NCBI RefSeq assembly: GCF_022201045.2
Contig: NC_068560.1
Location: forward strand, 38,713,001 to 38,777,000
Source: Citrus sinensis
Taxonomy: Eukaryota; Streptophyta; Magnoliopsida; Sapindales; Rutaceae
Direction of reading: 5' to 3'
DNA length: 64,000 bases
The notes below the pieces were generated by a model. It was not told where the DNA came from and did not search any database. It saw nothing but the letters and a program-made list of their open reading frames with translations. Below, piece by piece: positions 4,164-50,236 of the stretch. How positions within the stretch are numbered: position 1 is the first letter of the stretch; every line of letters starts with the position of its first letter. A program made the position numbers and the translations under genes.

Positions 4164-4343
4164 ATGTATGAAATTGGTGCTACAAATTCTGGCCTAGCTA
4201 GCACACAGCAGCCGATCAGAACACTGTACATATACAAATTAACGAATCCGAAACCGATCAGTTGCTCTCAGCCGTACAAATCATCAAGAATCATCGAAAT
4301 CGAAGTCGAAAGGCGCTTAGATATCGATCGATCGAGAAGATAA
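4164..4343 (+). other. Possible upstream ORF of AHL
   Basis: An ATG-initiated frame of 59 codons ends at 4343, 22 bp before the AHL start. It would be an upstream ORF only if transcription starts before 4164, which the sequence does not show. The peptide has no recognisable domain. Confidence 0.25.
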
Positions 4344-4365
4344 GAGAAGAGAGGTGGCGGCGGGG

Positions 4366-5352
4366 ATGATGGGTGGATACGAACAAAGGCAAGGCGGAGG
4401 TCGTTACTTTTATCAACTCCTGATGAGACCTGAACTGCATCTTCAAAGACCAATTGCAAGTACAACTGATTCACCTCAAAATATAATACAAACGCAACCG
4501 CAACCCTGCTCTAATAATTCGGATTCCGAAGATGATGACAACAGCAGCAGCAGCAGCAAACTGGGTAAAGCTCGTGATGATTTAGATGCAGCGGCAGCAG
4601 CTTCTTCTTCAAATCGGAGGCCGCGCGGCCGCCCTCCGGGTTCAAAGAACAAACCAAAACCACCCATTGTAGTGACGCGTGACAGCCCAAACGCTCTGCG
4701 ATCGCATGTGCTAGAAGTGTCAGGGGGAGCTGATATTGTGGAGAGCATGAGAAATTATGCTAGTAGAAGAGGGAGAGGTGTTTGTGTACTCAGTGGAAGT
4801 GGTACTGCTTCTAATGTTACGTTGAGGCAACCTGCTGGGAGTGTGCTCACCTTGCACGGTAGGTTTGAGATTCTTTCCCTCTCTGGGACTGTGCTTCCGC
4901 CGCCCGCACCACCCGGTGCCGGTGGATTGTCTATTTTTCTGTCAGGAGGGCAAGGCCAGGTGGTTGGAGGGACTGTGGTGGGGCCTTTAGTGGCATCTGG
5001 CCCTGTTATTTTGATAGCTGCTTCATTTGCTAACGCTGTTTTTGAGAGGTTGCCCTTGCCCTTAGATGATAATCATCCTCAGCAGCAGCAGCGGCAGCAG
5101 GAGGAGGAGGAGGAGGGTGGTGGTGGTGGTGTTCATCAAGTTCAGCCCTCCGCTAATTCACAATCGTCCGGTGTGACCGGAGGAGGCCATCAGCATCAGC
5201 TCACTGAAGGCCGTGGTGCCAGTGGCGCCTCTTTCTTTAATATGGGTACTACTGGTACTGCTGGAAATGTGGGAAATTATCCATTTTCAGGTGATTTGTT
5301 CGGATGGCCAGCTACTACTGCAAGTGCTGCCACTGCCAGGCCACCATTTTGA
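4366..5352 (+). CDS. AHL: AT-hook motif nuclear-localized (AHL) protein
   Basis: A single uninterrupted exon of 328 aa. I chose the ATG at 4366; the frame stays open slightly upstream but has only a GTG there. An acidic/Ser-rich stretch (about 50-65) precedes a type-I AT-hook, [10 protein letters not shown] at 87-96, which binds the minor groove of AT-rich DNA. A PPC/DUF296 domain (about 106-230) follows, containing the conserved GRFEIL hexapeptide at 165-170, used for AHL trimer formation and partner contacts. The C-terminus is low complexity (Gln, Glu and Gly runs). One AT-hook plus an intronless coding region is the pattern of clade-A AHLs, nuclear regulators of growth and development that act by modulating chromatin and transcription. 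Which paralogue (AHL15-29 group) cannot be decided here. Confidence 0.95.
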
Positions 5353-26755: not shown

Positions 26756-29441
26756 TCAACCTTTTAGATCGAGCCTCACATTCTCAACCTTCACCAACAT
26801 CTTTGTCTTCTCTTCTTCCATATCTTTCAAAACAGCCAGCAGTTTGGTCCGATATGCTTCACATCGCTGACTTGCATTTTCCAACTCAACAGTCAATTCC
26901 TGTATTTTCTTGTCCTGGTCCTACAATGAGGCATAAGATTGAGACCAGGTATTCTATTAATCCACGTATTATTGCATTATTACAAAGAAATTCATAAATA
27001 AAATATTCTCATTTGCAGAGACAATTTAATTAAAAAATATATGATTACTTGCCCGGATCAGAGCAAATAGAAAGGAAAGATTAAGACGGGCCCTCATTTA
27101 TAAATTATAGAAAGCCAATAAACTTGAAAGTAGGGAACCCAAAAAAATTAATAATGCAACCAAATAATTGAAGTATCCTTGGCACAATTTGTCCAGCAGT
27201 ATATAGAACCATAACTCTTGCCTTGAAGTAATGAAGGATACAAGGTTAAAAAATTTGAGATTTGCAGCATCTACTTCGACAAATACAAGATCACTGATAC
27301 ACAAGCCACAAATAAAGAGAATGATATGTGGGTAGAAAACTGACCACAGAGCAAGAGTGATGCTGTTGGCATCCACTAAACAGTGAATTCTGTGTGACCC
27401 CAGGACCATACTTCTTTGCAGCAGCAACCTTTTTTGCAGCCTCACGAAGCACGTCCATTGCCATGTTATAAATATGTGCTGATTCTGCCCCTTCTTCTAC
27501 ATATTTGATGACTTCCCGGCATAGATTGTCATAGCGAGCAGCGGACGACTCCTGACGACTACTTGCCAACCCAAGAACGTGACCATTCAATAGAACCCCA
27601 CTTTTGGCATTTCTTGTCCATCGTTTCAGGATATAATGAGATGGCAGAGTAAGAATATTTGTTACTCTAAAAACTGCCAAAATGTGCCTACAAATTATTC
27701 CTGAAAATTCAAACAGTTGGCAGCTGCAGCTAGCTTTCTTTTCAAAAATATTATACCTAACAAAATGTGCTTTTTGTTCTTCCCCAAATTTTGCCACCCG
27801 GTAGATAATCTCTGAGCCTGTATCATTAACTATAGTTGCAGGATAGGCAAGAGTTTCCACTAATTCCTCCTGAAACTTCATAAATATCTTCCTAGTATAA
27901 AGGTTTGCCACTTGTTTTTCCATAGGAGAAGGTGTCTTCAAAACAGGCTCCGTATTTACTGTATCATAATCAGCTTTTACTTCCTTTTCATGCCGAGAGG
28001 CTATTGCTTTCTCATACTGCTTAATGAGGGCCTGAATATTTGTTGATGCATTTATATACCCATCAAAGTATGAGTTTATATTATCACTTGCTTGAGTCAT
28101 GGACATCTCCCCAAAGAATGTATCCCGTAGATAGACTGGCACCCACTGTTGACGAACATTATACATTGATTGGAGCCATTCATTACCCACAAGGTTATAT
28201 CTTCGGATAAGAGATTCCCAGCATGATTCAAATTCATCAACTGTTTCTGTCATGTTGATGCACCTTTGGAACTCTGCTTCAAAATGCGGGTGAGACTGAT
28301 AAACATCAGACAATCTCTCTTGGGCTTCCCTAAACACATTCCACTTACAAAAACGATGTCGGGTTCCTGGAAAAACTTGTGCAACAGCAGCCCGTATAAT
28401 TCTATCCTGGTCAGTTGTAATTGAATTAGGGGAGCGTCCTGACATTGCAGCAAGCCAAGCCTCAAAAAGCCAAATAAATGAGGCCTCAGACTCATTAAGG
28501 AGCAATGCACATCCAAACAATACAGGCTGTCCGTGGTGGTTCAATCCAGTAAAAGGGGCAAATGGAATCCGATAACGATTCATCCTATATGTTGTATCGA
28601 AGGTAACAGTGTCCCCAAAGTAACTATAATTCATTCGTGAATTTGCATCAGCCCAAAAGATATTTCCTGTCGTGTTCTCAAAATCACCTTGGAAGGCACA
28701 AAAGAAACTGGGATCTTCAGCCTGCATTTGTTTTAAGTTGTCAATAACAACCTGACCTCCACTTCCTAGGGTCCTCTGCCTACTACTGCTCATATAATTT
28801 TGACAATCAACTTTTGTAAAACCAACATTATTAACTCCACCTGACTCCTTAATCAACACAGACATAACCCCACTCGGTCCCATCCCAGCTGCTTGAAGTG
28901 TATCAATCAAACTCCGAGCAGGACCAGATACATGTCTATGTGATCTAAGACAATGCACTTTATCAGGTGGCACAAGCTCATGATTATGCTCTTTAATAAG
29001 TTTCGACACTGCCCATTTCCCAGAACCCTGTTTCTTTACCGTCATCTGAGCCTTACACCCAACTCTAGTAATGGTGCGTTGTCTCTTAGACCTATTTTCA
29101 CTGCTCCCACGACGAAACCCTTCCCGTGAACAAACAATTTGGCGGCAAATAATAGATCCATCACGCCTAGACCGCTGGTAAACACTAACACGGGTACTAA
29201 AACCAATACGGCGAGCATAGGAATTATAGAAAATACGGGCAGCTTGTTCAGAATCAAATTCCATACCCTCAAAGGGTTCAAGATTAGGGTCACCATTTAA
29301 AGTTTCAAAATTTCTAGAATTATCTGGGAGTACATGATCATAGTAATCAGAAGGGCGTTCTGAATCATCTTCACCATTCGAATTACGCATTTCATCAAAT
29401 TCAATTACCCCATTTTCAATATCAAGTGGTTCAAATTCCAT
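26756..29441 (-). CDS. FRS: FAR1-related sequence (FRS) protein, domesticated MULE transposase
   Basis: Two coding exons, 27345-29441 and 26756-26920, joined in phase 0 by a 424-bp intron, give 753 aa. The FAR1 DNA-binding domain (about 68-155) shows C104, C129, H152 and H154. The MULE transposase core (about 275-375) retains TFDTTYRMN (D282) and TTDQDRII (D344). A SWIM zinc finger, CSCQLFEFSGIICRH, spans 572-586. The last exon adds a heptad-rich coiled coil (QDKKIQELTVELENASQRCE) that closes typical FRS12/FRS6-like proteins; a model stopping in exon 1 would miss it. The start is the ATG at 29441 (MEFEPLDIENG). FRS proteins are nuclear transcription factors derived from Mutator transposases, involved in light and developmental signalling. 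No terminal inverted repeats flank this gene, as expected for a domesticated copy. Confidence 0.93.
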
Positions 29442-30161
29442 GACCAATTATAACTAAAATGATTAATCCTACAACATGATTAGTATTATAAGAAAGAGGG
29501 TAACTGACCGGAGATCAGGAGCGTTGATCAAGAACAAAAAGAAGTGATTTTGAGTAGACGAGCCCCGTAAGATCAAAATTTTAAGCGCAGTCTCTTATAG
29601 GTATTATAAAATTTTAATGATGAAGGCTTGAAGCATAGAAAGAGGAGGGAATTTGATGTTGAGGGTTTTGGTTCAGTTTGGGTTTGGGAAGAGTTTAGGG
29701 TGTGAAAGAGGGACTCGAATTGGGTTCCTAGTTATTTGTCTTCCCCGCTGGATAACCTTCTGATTGAGAAATCCTTTCATCGTATTGGTGTGGCTTGTCA
29801 TTGCATCCAGTAGATTTATGACATCTGGCTCATTTTAATCTCTTATTTATGAGTGATTCACGTGTATATTTTATACAGCATGTATAATATGTAGTTATAG
29901 TGAAATGATGGAATTAAACTATCCAAATTTTCAAAGTTGGCTTAATAATTTTGCTCCAGATACAGTTGCATAGGCTCTTAATGCAAAATCACCACAACTA
30001 ATTGAATCATTCATTCACAAACTTAATGTAAACTTGGGACTGAATCAACAGTCACCACCAATTCAAAGGGGGCAAATGTTGAAGAACAAAGATCAGAAGT
30101 ACAGTTGTAGTTCTAGATAATATGTTTGCTAGAACAGCCAGGTTCAATTTGAACAAGAAAA
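29442..30161. other. FRS 5' flank and UGT relic 3' flank
   Basis: The left side carries the presumed FRS leader and promoter, the right side is the 3' flank of the dead UGT. No coding similarity seen. Confidence 0.45.
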
Positions 30162-38999: not shown

Positions 39000-40875
39000 T
39001 GTGTTTTCGTTTCAGTGGATGGTTATTACTGTTTGTTGCGTTTTTTTGGTATTTGGTATTGACTGTGTTGTGTGCAGTACTACTATACTGATTGGGGTTT
39101 TTGTTTGGTTTGTTACGGCCTTAAAAGGCTCTTTTTAAGCTTTTATAGGGGTGGATAAGTGGGACCGGCGATACTACCAACCAAGCCCACGGGCTTGAGG
39201 AGAACTTGTGTTCTTGATTACCCGTGGTTTCTACTGTTATTTGCGATCATGCCACTGACTCCGTCGTTTTCTTTTTTTTTTGTATGTTAATTCATTATTT
39301 ATTTCTGTGCATTGCGTTTTGCGCTGATTTTCAATTATTTTATTTGTTCGAGATCTTCCGATCTTTCCCTCGTTAGTATCAACTAAATCGGCCCTATAAT
39401 CTCATAAATATTACGTTGCTGCCATCCATACGCACACCGCACATCGTTAGTTGAAATCTCGCTTCTCATTTATAGTCATTTCTACGATTACAAGGGAAGG
39501 AGTCTTGAAAGTTTAGGCCATAAAATTATTAACTAATAATATACGCAGTATGGTCCCCAAAATTTACCACTTCGTTGGCTAGTATATTTTATAAAAATTA
39601 CAATGATAAAAGAAATTTTGAAATAATATTGGGGGAGCAAATTTTGTGAAAATGATGTGTAGAACAAATTATATTGGAGAGAAATTCAAATGAGATTGAG
39701 ATGGTATGTATATCCATTAAAGATTAGATTCTCTATTAAGGGTACGTTTGAAATTGAAATATTGTAATTTTTAAACTACAGTTATTGTGAAAAAAATTAT
39801 AATTATGAAATAAAAATTAGTAATATATAATAAATATAAATTTTAAATAATAAATTTAATAAAATTATTAAAAATATAATAATTTTTTATTATACAAATA
39901 AAAAATCATATCAACATAACTTACAAATTATAATAACTAACATTTATTAAATATTTTAATATTATATCTTTTAAATTATAATTATCCAACCTCAAATCCC
40001 ACTCAACGATCCACGTATTAAGATTTTATAAATTATAAGTGAGTTTTCAAATTGACAGTTGAGATAGATACGCTTGCCGGTACATGATAATCATCAGGGC
40101 CACTGAACAGCTGACTGGGACAGGAGAGATGATGATGAATGGTGGGTCGAAAATTCCGCACATTCGCTTGGAATATGCTGACAAAGGAGGATATTTTGGT
40201 AAATTTGCGCAAGCCCACTGACTTACCAGTTAACCAACCAACCAACCAAACAAACAAGCAACTCGACGCAGGTTTTATGTCGTTGTAGTGTAACCCTCAC
40301 TTAACTCTCCGCAATGGGAAAAGCCTTTTTCAAGCCTATGTTTTTTTTTGAAAAATTTTCAAGTCTATTTTCTTTTTTTTCAAGTATATTTTAGTTTGGA
40401 TGTTTGCGGAGCTTTTAGTATTACTCCTTAAGGTTTCAAATTTTTCAAGTTTCAACGCAAATTTCATAAAACTGGGTACCAGCCATGGTTTTTAACCAAA
40501 CCCCGACTGGAAAAGTTAACGATTTTAAGTTTTTATGCAAATTCTCTTGTCTTGAGCAAATTCTCTAGTCTTCCTTTCTTGAGCAAATTCTCTAGTCTTC
40601 CTTTCTCGGACATAGATAAGCTTTTATGCAATTGAATTAATAAATGTGACGCTTTCTTCTTAAACTTCTAGAATGAAATTAGTAAATACGATCTAAATAT
40701 TATGAAGAAAGTTCCATCACATCACATGCCATAGTTCTCAAAGATAGAGCTACTTTGACTTATCCTATAACATAAACCATTCAGTAGCATTTTCGCTTCT
40801 AATTATATAGACCCTTTCACCATCCTCTCATATCCTGAAATGAAAAACCAAAACTTGGAGGTGGTGAAGGCATTC
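39000..40875. other. Intergenic; PFP-alpha promoter and bZIP60 3' side
   Basis: AT-rich, no coding similarity. Region 39739-40000 is an extremely AT-rich block starting gggtacgtttgaaattg that may be a degraded MITE, but I could not match its ends. A small direct repeat (cttgagcaaattctctagtcttcctttct) occurs at 40552-40605. Confidence 0.45.
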
Positions 40876-42924
40876 TCAAGCCAAAACACTAAGCGCATGA
40901 GAAGTCATTTTCATCTTTCTCCTTGAAGCTTTGCATCTCCGAGACTTCACCACTGCTAATAGATAATTCTTACTTCCTGCTTCTCTTTGAACTAGATTTC
41001 CTGGAGCCTTTTCTTCCACTTGAACCAGTGGTACTGACTCCAGATGTGACCAGATGGGTTTGGGCAGAGTGAATAGGCACATGATGCCCAGGAACCAAAG
41101 CAGGGAACCCAACAGCAGGGATTCTGCAAAGCAACAAAGACCTGTACTAATCAGCATACCTAAAAGATCAAGCCACTAAATGAAAGGCCCACACGACCAC
41201 GTAATGAAAACCATCAAATGATAACCGTTAACAATGAAATCCATAGTTCATTCCTAGGAAATGGAAAACATAACCAAACTCATAACCAGGTAAGGGGTTC
41301 TGTTTTACCACAGTACACCATCTGACCAAAAAGTTACCCGAATATCAGTAAGGAAACTTAACAATCTCAACATATGCAGCATGCCTTTAAAGTTAATCAA
41401 ACATGATAAATGCCAAAACTGCTGTCATAAAACATTACAGTCTTGAAAGCCTATCTGCTGTCAAAACCCCAAGTATAACTTCTACATGTATCCTGAAGAT
41501 CCAATGTGAAAATAATCCAACAATAGGCTCTAGACAACTTAAGAATTAGATTCACTCCCCTGTTTTCCTACCACTACAGAAGCATAAAATTTGCCACAGG
41601 TTAAAACCCTCATCCCAAGAAAAATTCGGCCAACAGATTTTATAAACATGTACAGCAACAGTTACAAAGTTCTTCAACCAAACTTCAGAACAAAGAAAGA
41701 TTGATGTGCGACCAAGAACAACAAGTTGATTTTGTCAGTTGAGAAAATCGTGAGGATGCTAAATCTTTGATTACATGAAGAACAGCATATCTGTACACGC
41801 GTGGACATGATTGCATTTGAATAACAAGATAAAGCTTCAGCCATATACAAGCCAGTTAAATTTTGAAACTACCAAAATTAAGAGCATTGAAGACAATGCC
41901 ACACTGATACTGTATTAATGGTGAATTCAACTCCACAATAATAAATAACTCCACATTCCAAGAGCCAAGAATATGAGGGAAAGATAATTCATGAATCATA
42001 CCCAACAAGAGCACAGCAGACTCCTGCTTGGTCAAGGATGCACCATATGCATTGCCCTTTTGCAAACTAAATCTAAGGGATTGATTTTCTGCAAGAACAC
42101 AGTGAAGCAACCGCCCGAGTTTCCTGCATTCACTTTCCAAGTACCTGCTCTTTATCTCCAGATCCTTCACATACATCTTCTTCCTCTCCCTTGATCTGAC
42201 TGCCGCATCCCTATTTCTCAACTGCCTGGAAAATTCAGATCAACCATCACATACAGCCCTTCAATTTCCATTCTCCACAAATCAAATAGCAGTAATAATT
42301 AATAAATTTATTTGGAAATATAATAACCCAGAACACGCTTAAAACATCATTCAATATTCAATAATCAGAAACAGAGCATCTAGCCATCTACGAATAGTCG
42401 GAGGAGGTAAAAGAATAAAAAAAAAAAAGGAGCAAACATAGAAATCTCATACATATATTAAAAAGAAAGGCAAAATGTATGCCATGAATTTACAGATACC
42501 TTCTCCGTTTCTTGGAGATGGGATCATCAGCATTATCGTTGTCAGTGTCGTTATAGTTTTTGTCGCTGTTGTTGACCTCTGGTTCATCGAGCACCTTCTC
42601 CTCAGCCGGGCTAGCATTACCAGATTCATCGGCACCGTTTTGGTCCTTGTCAGTTGGCAGCTCAATCACCTCAGCACCAGAAGCAGGCGAAGGCTGATCA
42701 ACGAATACATCTGCAAAGAAATCGTCCAACGATTGCTGATTCGGCTCTAGCTCCGAATTATCATCATTATCGTTCATTAGCATGCTCTCAATATCCCCGA
42801 TCCACGGAGACACCGAACCATCCGGTGAGGGATTTGAGAAAATTTCTGCCGTTGATGGATCCGTTAACTCCGTCAAAAGATTGTTCCAATCAAATTCATC
42901 TTCTAAAAATTCATCATCTGCCAT
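40876..42924 (-). CDS. bZIP60: bZIP60-type ER-stress transcription factor with IRE1 splice site
   Basis: Exons: 42500-42924, 42002-42225, 40876-41123; 897 bp, 298 aa unspliced (Arabidopsis bZIP60 has 295). An acidic N-terminal activation region (1-135) is followed by a basic region with N146-x7-R154 in QLRNRDAAVRSRERKK and a leucine zipper (about 160-200). A single membrane segment, SLLLGSLLWFLGIMCLFTLP, starts at 218, so the full form is ER-anchored. CTG|CTG sits in exon 2 (cut between 42017 and 42016) and again in exon 3 (cut between 41116 and 41115). Removing 42002-42016 and 41116-41123 (23 nt of mRNA) shifts frame: the membrane segment is replaced by a Ser/Lys/Arg-rich tail (SSGRKGSRKSSSKRSRK) ending at 40970, 259 aa. 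This matches the known IRE1-dependent bZIP60 switch. Confidence 0.95.
41116..42016 (-). promoter_or_regulatory. Bipartite IRE1 (CxG|CxG) splice site of bZIP60
   Basis: In the mature mRNA the two CTG|CTG motifs lie exactly 23 nt apart: 15 nt come from the end of exon 2 (42002-42016) and 8 nt from the start of exon 3 (41116-41123). The spliceosomal intron 41124-42001 lies between them, so the RNA structure cut by IRE1 exists only after normal splicing. Flanking sequence (agtctgctgtgc and tccctgctgttggg) can form the paired stem-loops known from the plant family; I inferred the folding, I did not compute it. Confidence 0.85.
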
Positions 42925-44480
42925 AACTACTTAACCCTAAGATATCAGAAACGAAACCAAAAAAAAAAAAAAAAAGGAAAAATGAAAAAATCACCGGACG
43001 TTGAAGATGGGGATATAATATTGACAGAATTATTAGGTTGTGGGAGCAAGCGGAGGCCGATTTTATACCGTGGTGTTTGGGAATTTTGAAACCGCGTACT
43101 CTCAATACCTTCGTAAGCAAGTAAAAATTCTAATCAGGAAGGTCCCACGAGAGCCACAGAGGTCGTGGCTGCTGATCGCTTACGTGTACCAATTGAAATT
43201 TTGGTTGATTGCGAACGCCTCGACCAATACTGCAGGTGTTGCCGTCACTCAACCAATAGGAACACAGATCGTGGCAAGTAAAGAGACAATCTAGACTTTA
43301 CACGTGGAGCAATTCAGTTCCTCTAATTAAAAAGGTCAGCTCTCCTTCAGTTTTCATTCAACCGTCTCCTTCTCTTCCAGGTCCCGTTTCAAAATTACGA
43401 ACGCCTCGTTTGGTTGTGGGATGATTCTTTGGGATTTATGTGATCTCACGTTCGGTAAGTTCACGAAGTGCAGAGCTATGAACCCCAAAAAAATTAGTGA
43501 GAAGCTATCCCACAACTCCATGGGATTACTTCGGATGAGTTTTCTAATTCTAGTTACTTAAATAATTTAGTAGTAAATTACATTATTCATTATCATATTA
43601 TAAAATAAATTACTTAATAATCACAAAAAAAAATGAAAACAATAATTTACTCACTGTAGAGGGAGGAGTTTAATTGAAAATAAATAGAACGCGTAACACC
43701 TAGAAGCTATGGGGGACGGACGACATTGGTGAGCCTGTTTAACTCCCAAAATCCGTGAACTAGAAAAAAGATATAAGAGGCAAAGAAATCGGCCAAAAGG
43801 ATAACTAGGAAATTCAATCTCATCCTTGGAAACCAACCTCACCTCAGACCTCAGTGTTACCAAGTGAAATGCAAACCCAAGTTTGCCAACTTGTTTTTGG
43901 AAATTGGAACTATTATTAAAGAAAAGAGGCAGCAGCACCAGCAGGCAGCTTTGGAAACGAGCATGAATAGTCAATACAAAAACAAGATTGATAACAAATT
44001 TCTCCACCATACCATAATAATAAAAATAATAATAATTCACCTTGGTTTAAATAAGTAATTTTTTTTTACTTCACAATAAAAAAAAATGTTTGTAATAGTA
44101 TATGTATTATTGAAAATAAATATTTGGCTATTTCATAATTAAAATAGATTTCTAAATTTAATGAGTTTTATTTGTACTAAATTTATGATTAAATACCAAT
44201 CAAAAAAAACTTATGATTAAATAAATATTTAACTGATTAAATATTTTTAAATGATTTAAAAAAAAAATAAAGTATTGCAAGTCAACACCTACAATTTGGC
44301 AGGTCTAACTGATCCCGTCAATGAAACCCACGAATTAAACGATACAGGCTCTATGGATTATAAGCAAAACTCACTAATTGATAGCTAATAAATTTAAAAA
44401 AAAAAAAAAAAGAATTAAATTTTAGTCATACACTAGTGCTAAAAAAAACTCAAGGGACACAAGATCTTTCTAGAATTAAG
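42925..44480. other. bZIP60 promoter side and intergenic DNA
   Basis: Contains the bZIP60 upstream region. cgtgtaccaat (43183-43193) reads ATTGGTACACG on the gene strand, one base off the ER-stress element ERSE-II (ATTGG-N-CCACG), about 260 bp from the ATG. A G-box CACGTG lies at 43301-43306. The remainder is AT-rich with poly(A) runs (about 44397-44412) and no gene. Confidence 0.4.
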
Positions 44481-48610: not shown

Positions 48611-49411
48611 TCACTGATTCTCCTCCCTTTCTCGATTCCACTGCTCAATCTTGGCTCTGCGCTCCTCGCTCCCTTCTCTAACAGGGGTCCTACTCCTAGA
48701 GCTAGTGCTGCTCCTCGAGTGTGTCCTCCTGCTCCTCTCGTAATCTCGATCTCTGTAGCTTCTCCTATAATCTCTGTCTCCATCTCTCCTGTGTCGAGAA
48801 CGAAGATGAGGAATGGGACTGAAACTCCTGCTTCGGCTTCTACGACGGTACCTTCCAAAAAGTTTGTTTCTCAGATCCCTGCCAATCAATTTGACGTGCA
48901 TAAAGTTACAATAACCGCCACGGTTACAGTTATTCTCCTCAAACTGCCGACAAGTGGCCTCACGGAAATCAGTAACGGGTGAAAATTCAACAATGATGGG
49001 ACGGCCGGAGTAGAATCGTCCTTGCAGAGCATGCAATGCTGCTGCAGCTTGCTCTTCCTCTCTGAACTGGACATAGACATTGCCAATCATGTGGTCGGCG
49101 AGATTATCGCAGACGTTTAAGCATTCGATTTCGCCGAACTTGCTGAGCTCTTCGAAAATGTCCTCGTAAAAGTCCTCGAAGTGTTCCTGAATCTTGCGAG
49201 GGTCGATGGGCTGGCCCTGGGCGTCGACGCCGGGAGTGATCATGTCGGGGCGCTGATACATGTTGGAAAGGAGGAGGGTTGGGGAAATTGTGGGGCGGTT
49301 GTGGAGGCGGGAGCAGCGGTCGCCGTGTCGGCACGCGCCGATCTTGAAATAGAAAGGACAGTTCACGCGGTCCTTTTCCGTTCCGAAGATTGATGCCAAG
49401 TGCTCCGCCAT
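48611..49411 (-). CDS. U2AF35: U2 snRNP auxiliary factor small subunit (U2AF35)
   Basis: A single-exon coding region of 266 aa. Start [20 protein letters not shown] at 49411 is the conserved family start. CCCH zinc finger 1 is C18, C27, C33, H37; a U2AF-homology RRM spans about 45-145 ([20 protein letters not shown]); CCCH finger 2 is C154, C162, C168, H172. An RS domain (about 189-250, [25 protein letters not shown]) closes the protein. U2AF35 recognises the AG at the 3' splice site with U2AF65 during early spliceosome assembly in the nucleus. The frame stays open for 58 codons upstream to an ATG at 49585. That extension is Lys/Arg-rich, lacks family similarity and is most likely 5'UTR. Lack of coding introns is usual for plant U2AF35. 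Confidence 0.96.
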
Positions 49412-50236
49412 GGCTAGTCCGCGTCCCGCAAACTTCACCGCAGAATCCTTGTCTTGTGAAGGAAATGGAATTTCCGAAAGCTTGTCTATCCAGACACAAA
49501 CTTCTTCTCGCTTCCCTTCCCTCAAAAACCTTTTCTTTTTCTTTTTTCTTTCTTTCGTGCGTACGTTTGTTTGCGTGTGTGCCATCGCGGCCGTACATCA
49601 TCGTCGAGTCAAAATTTATTTAAATGTCCCACATCGAGAGGCTTCGAGGCCCAATCTGCTAGTCATTTTGAAAGCCCAGTTCTTTCCTCGTTGGTGCCAG
49701 TTGGGGCCCATTTCCCATTACATTTGACTTTGACTCGTCATCTTTCCACAGCATTTTATGGACGGCAAAAGGCCAAAAATATTACAGTATTTTAAAATCT
49801 ATTATTTTTATACCCACTTTCTAAAAACACCTTTTTTTGACTCTCGGTTAAATATATGATACAGTACACAATTAAATAGAGTAAATGACGTTGGATTTGG
49901 GTATATCAAAATAGTTCGCAACGGAAACAAGAAATATTATGTTATACCATTTTCAAGCTTCTTCACAATGGAAACAAGAAATATTAAAAATAGTTTGCCA
50001 AATTTTGACATTTAGGTCAAAAACATGTTTGAATTTCAAACAACTTTTTGAGACATCGTACAATAAAATTTGGCCAAACATTAATATGAGAGCTTCGAAA
50101 CATTATATTATATGCCTAATTTTGACAACATTTATCTGCCTATTATGGTTGAAAAATATTCTACATCATAATGTTAAATTATATTATAAAGATAAATTTA
50201 TCTTTTATGAAGATTCACTAATAGATCCAACTCCAC
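49412..50236. other. U2AF35 leader/promoter and intergenic DNA
   Basis: The U2AF35 leader is pyrimidine/purine biased (CTTTTTCTTTTTTC on the plus strand near 49525). The rest is AT-rich with a duplicated aaacaagaaatatta (about 49925-49940 and 49972-49986). No gene. Confidence 0.4.

What the first reader, a model, noticed from the sequence alone, without database searches (positions are those of the whole stretch)
41116..42016. Complete IRE1-type unconventional splicing switch in a bZIP60 gene
The sequence shows two CTG|CTG motifs that become exactly 23 nt apart once the 878-bp spliceosomal intron is removed. Excision converts an ER-anchored 298-aa protein into a 259-aa protein in which the membrane segment is replaced by a Ser/Lys/Arg-rich tail. 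Family knowledge: Arabidopsis bZIP60 loses 23 nt through IRE1 under ER stress. The inference is that this locus is under the same control, and that the RNA substrate forms only after nuclear splicing because its halves lie in different exons.
Basis: partly seen in the sequence, partly recalled or inferred. Interest (0 to 1): 0.7.

Follow-up and report, generated by a model that had tools for sequence, protein, structure and literature searches.

The report
Plant bZIP60 IRE1 splicing switch, intron-split
This is an ordinary plant gene for the stress regulator bZIP60, with the known RNA switch that the enzyme IRE1 is expected to cut under protein-folding stress; the one unusual detail is that a normal intron sits inside the 23 bases that IRE1 would remove, a layout that may well be shared with other plants.

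Summary
A three-exon bZIP gene lies on the minus strand (CDS 42924-40876). Removing an 878-nt GT-AG intron (42001-41124) leaves two CTG|CTG motifs 23 nt apart. The unspliced mRNA encodes 298 aa with a membrane segment. Removing 23 nt gives 259 aa with a Ser/Lys/Arg-rich tail. The Arabidopsis 23-nt string printed in PMC9302528 occurs exactly in the joined mRNA, across the junction, and nowhere contiguous in the window. With 20-100 nt flanks the mRNA folds into twin hairpins with both cut sites in loops; none of 500 synonymous recodings matched this. Folds of longer stretches are much less favourable.

This is a new member of the known IRE1-bZIP60 system, not a new mechanism. In Arabidopsis the 23 bp lies within exon 2 (PMC4398384). 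Potato bZIP60 is reported with phases (2,1), as here (PMC7796262), so the nested intron is probably older. "Forms only after splicing" is overstated: each hairpin can form locally in pre-mRNA, but their spacing and enclosing stem cannot. IRE1 and RNA ligase were not tested because the genome search did not complete.

The parts
42500..42924 (-). exon 1 coding part (425 nt, ends in phase 2)
   Evidence: ATG at 42924; GT-AG intron follows
42226..42499 (-). spliceosomal intron 1 (274 nt, GT-AG) inside the basic region codons
42002..42225 (-). exon 2 (224 nt): basic region, zipper, first IRE1 loop; ends in phase 1
41124..42001 (-). spliceosomal intron 2 (878 nt, GT-AG), lies inside the predicted IRE1 intron
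   Evidence: the joined junction reproduces the printed Arabidopsis 23-nt string exactly
40876..41123 (-). exon 3 coding part to the stop of the unspliced (298 aa) form
42002..42016 (-). 5' part (15 nt) of the 23-nt predicted IRE1 intron
41116..41123 (-). 3' part (8 nt) of the 23-nt predicted IRE1 intron
42009..42023 (-). hairpin 1, loop CUG|CUGU, entirely in exon 2
41104..41123 (-). hairpin 2, 8-nt loop CUG|CUGUU; its first two bases are 42003-42002 in exon 2
   Evidence: PMC4398384 states that the second plant loop has 8 nt
42024..42033 (-). 5' arm of the predicted stem enclosing both hairpins (exon 2)
   Evidence: local pair probability 0.33-0.51
41093..41103 (-). 3' arm of the predicted stem enclosing both hairpins (exon 3)
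   Evidence: local pair probability 0.33-0.51
41065..41121 (-). membrane segment of the unspliced protein (best hydropathy window, residues 218-236)
   Evidence: Kyte-Doolittle 2.15
40970..40972 (-). stop codon of the 259-aa spliced form
43183..43193 (-). ATTGGTACACG, one mismatch from the ERSE-II form ATTGG-N-CCACG (motif form recalled)
   Evidence: no exact ERSE, ERSE-II or UPRE match in 1000 nt upstream

Best explanation
The locus is the plant's bZIP60 gene (bZIP group K). The spliceosome joins exons 1-3 in the nucleus. The exported mRNA encodes a 298-aa transcription factor held in the ER membrane by a segment encoded around and just past the exon 2-3 junction. Under ER stress, IRE1 cuts both CUG|CUG loops, 23 nt are lost and an RNA ligase joins the ends. 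The frame shifts after residue 213, the membrane segment is lost and a 46-residue basic tail replaces it, giving a 259-aa nuclear factor. Shown here: the gene structure as read from sequence, the motifs and spacing, the two reading frames, the local fold, and identity to printed Arabidopsis strings. Inferred: transcription, IRE1 cleavage, ligation, location of the two proteins, and the order of the two splicing events.
For: Exact spacing and frame switch. Pfam bZIP_1 E 2.4e-8 and bZIP_2 E 4.9e-6, both above cut-off. The printed Arabidopsis 23-nt string (PMC9302528) is in the joined unspliced mRNA and on neither strand of the window as a contiguous string; the 24-nt spliced-form primer is in the predicted spliced form and not in the unspliced mRNA or the window's minus strand. 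Both cut sites are in loops of at most 9 nt in 0.94-0.98 of sampled structures with 20-100 nt flanks. 0 of 500 synonymous recodings reach the native loop fraction or the native folding energy. The second loop has 8 nt, as stated for plant bZIP60 in PMC4398384. Maize, an experimentally shown relative, goes from 300 to 258 aa in the same way with 20 nt removed (PMC3369818).
Against: No RNA evidence. The dinucleotide-shuffle energy test of the 73-nt core is weak (z -1.32; 18 of 200 shuffles as stable). P(both sites in loops) is 0.66 with 150-nt flanks and 0.006-0.37 with 200-300 nt flanks or the whole CDS. In the whole-CDS fold the enclosing stem has pair probabilities of 0.00-0.01 and hairpin 2 of 0.28-0.44; in an exon 2 + exon 3 fold hairpin 2 has 0.05-0.14. 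Even in local folding the enclosing stem reaches only 0.33-0.51. No exact ERSE, ERSE-II or UPRE in the 1000 nt upstream. IRE1 and RNA ligase in this genome are untested (search did not complete).
Confidence: 0.95

Rival explanations
1. A bZIP60 gene whose switch has decayed: the motifs remain by descent, but IRE1 no longer cuts, and the factor is released another way (for example proteolysis) or stays in the membrane.
For: No RNA data; the genome search for IRE1 did not answer; long-range folds are unfavourable.
Against: Both frames are open and the spliced tail is basic. The switch region is identical to the printed Arabidopsis strings at all 23 and all 24 letters. None of 500 synonymous recodings put both sites in loops in 0.9 or more of structures (mean 0.017), so third positions look constrained.
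Confidence: 0.04
2. Retention of intron 2 is a second, spliceosome-only route to a form without the full membrane segment: reading into intron 2 gives a 264-aa protein with the whole bZIP domain and another tail (stop 41858-41856).
For: Open frame of 264 aa; its best 19-residue hydropathy window is 1.32 against 2.15 in the membrane form. Intron 2 is the last intron seen in the coding region, so the stop would not precede a later coding junction (inference).
Against: Any retained intron gives some tail. The tail here is moderately hydrophobic, not basic, and no transcript data are available.
Confidence: 0.05
3. The CTG|CTG pair and the fold are a chance result of a Leu-rich coding stretch.
For: CTG is a Leu codon, the stretch is Leu-rich, and the dinucleotide-shuffle energy z is only -1.32.
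Against: 2 of 3000 simulations give the 23-nt pair; 0 of 500 synonymous recodings with the motifs kept give the fold; exact identity to Arabidopsis strings.
Confidence: 0.01

Closest known systems
Arabidopsis bZIP60 (AT1G42990), IRE1A/IRE1B substrate
   Same: bZIP factor with membrane segment; 23-nt removal; frame shift to a tail without the membrane segment; the printed 23-nt string and spliced-form primer match exactly.
   Different: In Arabidopsis the 23 bp lies within the second exon (PMC4398384 Fig 4 legend); here an 878-nt spliceosomal intron splits it 15 + 8.
Potato bZIP60 (group K)
   Same: Single bZIP60 orthologue in group K; group K is reported with a (2,1) exon pattern (PMC7796262), which I read as intron phases 2 then 1, the same as here, so intron 2 is probably at the same place.
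   Different: Exact intron position and IRE1 site were not seen; the potato sequence is not held.
Maize bZIP60 and wheat bZIP74 (with rice bZIP50/74)
   Same: Twin loops, frame shift, loss of the membrane segment; maize 300 to 258 aa (PMC3369818).
   Different: 20 nt removed in maize and wheat, with a shorter bridge between the loops in monocots, rice included.
Metazoan XBP1 and yeast HAC1
   Same: IRE1 cuts twin stem-loops in a bZIP mRNA.
   Different: 26-nt and 252-nt introns; the unspliced forms are not ER-membrane factors of this kind.
Cryptococcus HXL1
   Same: One gene with both a conventional (55-nt) and an IRE1 (56-nt) intron (PMC3154848).
   Different: There the two introns are separate, upstream and downstream of the bZIP domain, not nested.

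Membership tests
Plant IRE1-bZIP60 switch (dicot type) | bZIP DNA-binding and zipper domain | tested here: met
   Pfam bZIP_1 2.4e-8, bZIP_2 4.9e-6
Plant IRE1-bZIP60 switch (dicot type) | Two CNG|CNG loops with cut sites 23 nt apart in the mature mRNA | tested here: met
Plant IRE1-bZIP60 switch (dicot type) | Membrane segment only in the unspliced form; frame-shifted basic tail in the spliced form | tested here: met
   by hydropathy and composition
Plant IRE1-bZIP60 switch (dicot type) | Twin hairpins with cut sites in loops | tested here: met
   Met with flanks up to 100 nt; 0.66 with 150 nt and 0.006-0.37 with longer stretches
Plant IRE1-bZIP60 switch (dicot type) | Near-identical nucleotide sequence of the switch region across plants | tested here: met
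   Tested against one species only: 23 of 23 and 24 of 24 letters match the Arabidopsis strings printed in PMC9302528; a further 34-letter primer matches 23 of 34
Plant IRE1-bZIP60 switch (dicot type) | IRE1-dependent loss of 23 nt under ER stress | not testable with these tools
   needs RNA from stressed tissue
Plant IRE1-bZIP60 switch (dicot type) | IRE1 and an RNA ligase in the same genome | not tested
   The genome search did not answer for PF06479; no ligase query was sent
Plant IRE1-bZIP60 switch (dicot type) | Intron phases of group K as reported for potato (2,1) | tested here: met
   phases 2 and 1 against PMC7796262

The most novel reading that the evidence does not exclude
The spliceosomal intron inside the IRE1 intron is kept for a reason. 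It makes the IRE1 substrate assemble only on correctly spliced, exported mRNA. It also places the exon junction complex (about 20-24 nt upstream of the junction, recalled) on the 5' arm of the twin-hairpin structure (offsets -24 to -20; the first cut lies at -15), so that the first round of translation would have to clear the site before IRE1 can cut. Arabidopsis, with the site in one exon, would be the natural comparison.
Probability: 0.06. Interest if true: 0.55.

Novelty: new member of a known kind. Interest (0 to 1): 0.22.

Why it matters
As a gene it adds one more plant to a well-studied stress switch and gives exact coordinates for an RT-PCR assay. The split layout matters mildly. Searches of genomic DNA for a contiguous twin hairpin would miss this gene, because the full site exists only in the joined mRNA. 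If the predicted gene structure and switch are confirmed, it is also a case of an IRE1 intron with a spliceosomal intron nested inside it, which Arabidopsis has probably lost (inference).

Tried and rejected
Homologue searches with the 298-aa protein in viral contigs and genome contigs gave 4 and 11 pattern matches, none confirmed, as expected for a plant gene; I had no other plant genome to compare. Rfam gave 0 matches at E up to 1 over 40700-43100. Exact ERSE, ERSE-II and UPRE motifs: none in 1000 nt upstream. The idea that the hairpins cannot form before splicing was rejected in its strong form. Literature on the nested intron: ten searches of the paper library and passages of 15 papers showed me no statement of an IRE1 intron split by a spliceosomal intron. 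I read no paper whole. So I make no claim that the layout is unreported.

Full report
What is there. The gene runs on the minus strand. Coding exon 1 is 42924-42500 (425 nt), intron 1 is 42499-42226 (274 nt), exon 2 is 42225-42002 (224 nt), intron 2 is 42001-41124 (878 nt), and coding exon 3 is 41123-40876. Both introns are GT-AG, with phases 2 and 1. The product is 298 aa, with Pfam bZIP_1 at 2.4e-8 (residues 138-180) and bZIP_2 at 4.9e-6 and a strong hydrophobic stretch, best from residue 218. The window is 64 kb of a 299.7-Mb genome in 11 contigs; a DNA search of that genome with exon 2 lists this one place at E up to 0.001. Three neighbouring frames (PCC, FAR1 and CCCH-RRM proteins) fit a plant. 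The species is not identified.

The switch. In the joined mRNA the CTG|CTG cut points lie 15 nt before and 8 nt after the exon 2-3 junction, 23 nt apart. Removing 42016-42002 and 41123-41116 changes the frame after residue 213 and gives 259 aa ending in a Ser/Lys/Arg-rich tail. First-order Markov simulations of the CDS give such a pair in 2 of 3000 cases.

Comparison with the known system. I read passages (no whole paper) of 15 papers. [quoted passage not shown] PMC9302528 prints an Arabidopsis 23-nt string and primers. The string occurs exactly in the joined mRNA here, across the junction, and contiguously on neither strand of the window. The spliced-form primer (24 letters) occurs exactly in the predicted spliced form and not in the unspliced mRNA or the minus strand of the window. 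A third primer, further 3', matches 23 of 34 letters. The exact match across the junction also supports the exon boundary. By hand, the 23-nt string as printed starts five bases later than the CTG|CTG cut used here; on the sequence here, removing it as printed would not give that paper's own spliced-form primer, so I take the cut from the primer.

The fold. With 20-100 nt flanks both cut sites are in hairpin loops of at most 9 nt in 0.94-0.98 of sampled structures. The minimum-energy core is a three-way arrangement: hairpin 1 in exon 2, hairpin 2 mostly in exon 3, and an enclosing stem pairing exon 2 with exon 3; 25 of 35 predicted pairs cross the junction. Keeping the protein and the two motifs fixed and recoding the rest of about 100 nt synonymously, 0 of 500 versions reached the native loop fraction (0.951; mean of recodings 0.017) and 0 of 500 the native energy (-38.7 kcal/mol; mean -25.6, sd 4.0). 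Against this, the 73-nt core is not exceptional in energy by dinucleotide shuffling (z -1.32, 18 of 200). P(both sites in loops) falls to 0.66 with 150-nt flanks, 0.006 with 200, 0.07 with 250, 0.28 with 300 and 0.37 in the whole CDS. In the whole-CDS fold the enclosing stem has pair probabilities of 0.00-0.01, hairpin 1 0.35-0.79 and hairpin 2 0.28-0.44; in an exon 2 + exon 3 fold hairpin 2 has only 0.05-0.14. In local folding the enclosing stem has a median of 0.33-0.51. Global folds of long mRNAs are unreliable, but these results count against a simple picture.

Before and after nuclear splicing. In pre-mRNA fragments site 1 is in a small hairpin loop in 0.96-0.99 of structures and site 2 in 0.98, 0.91, 0.48 and 0.45 with 25, 60, 100 and 150 nt flanks. 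In locally folded pre-mRNA the native pairs of hairpin 2 have a median of 0.14-0.16 and the enclosing stem 0; in a fold of exon 2, intron 2 and exon 3 together hairpin 2 has 0.00-0.02. So the single loops can exist before splicing, while the paired substrate with 23-nt spacing cannot.

Is the nested intron special? Potato has one bZIP60 orthologue in group K, and group K is reported with a (2,1) exon pattern (PMC7796262), the same phases as here. [quoted passage not shown] The simplest reading is that both introns are old and Arabidopsis lost the second. This is inference from phases; no other plant gene sequence was available. Cryptococcus HXL1 has both kinds of intron, but apart from each other (PMC3154848). 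I found no statement of a nested IRE1 intron in what I read, but PMC4891664 could not be opened, so I make no claim of priority.

Verdict. The finding is correct and describes a known switch in one more plant. The nested layout is a small addition. Function is inferred by family, with high confidence. Interest is low to modest.

Noticed in passing
window 48611-49597 (-): Uninterrupted frame of 328 aa with CCCH zinc finger (6.2e-13) and RRM (3.6e-6), looking like the small subunit of U2AF (name recalled), a splicing factor.
   Followed up: partly
window 27291-29447 (-): Uninterrupted 718-aa frame with FAR1, MULE transposase and SWIM domains: a FAR1/FRS-type domesticated transposase gene (name recalled).
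   Followed up: partly
window 4321-5352 (+): 343-aa frame with a PCC domain (1.4e-21) and an AT-hook-like [12 protein letters not shown] motif: an AHL-type gene (name recalled).
   Followed up: partly
window 43069-43307 (-), upstream of the ATG: Three ATTGG and four CCACG cores lie within about 390 nt upstream of the start codon, one ATTGG one mismatch from an ERSE-II form; this may reflect ER-stress control of the gene itself. Not tested against chance.
   Followed up: no
window 42001-41856 (-): Reading through the retained intron 2 gives an open frame to a 264-aa bZIP protein without the basic tail or the full membrane segment.
   Followed up: partly
PMC9302528, Materials and methods: The 23-bp string printed as the Arabidopsis intron appears shifted by five bases against the paper's own spliced-form primer (worked out by hand on the sequence here).
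   Followed up: partly
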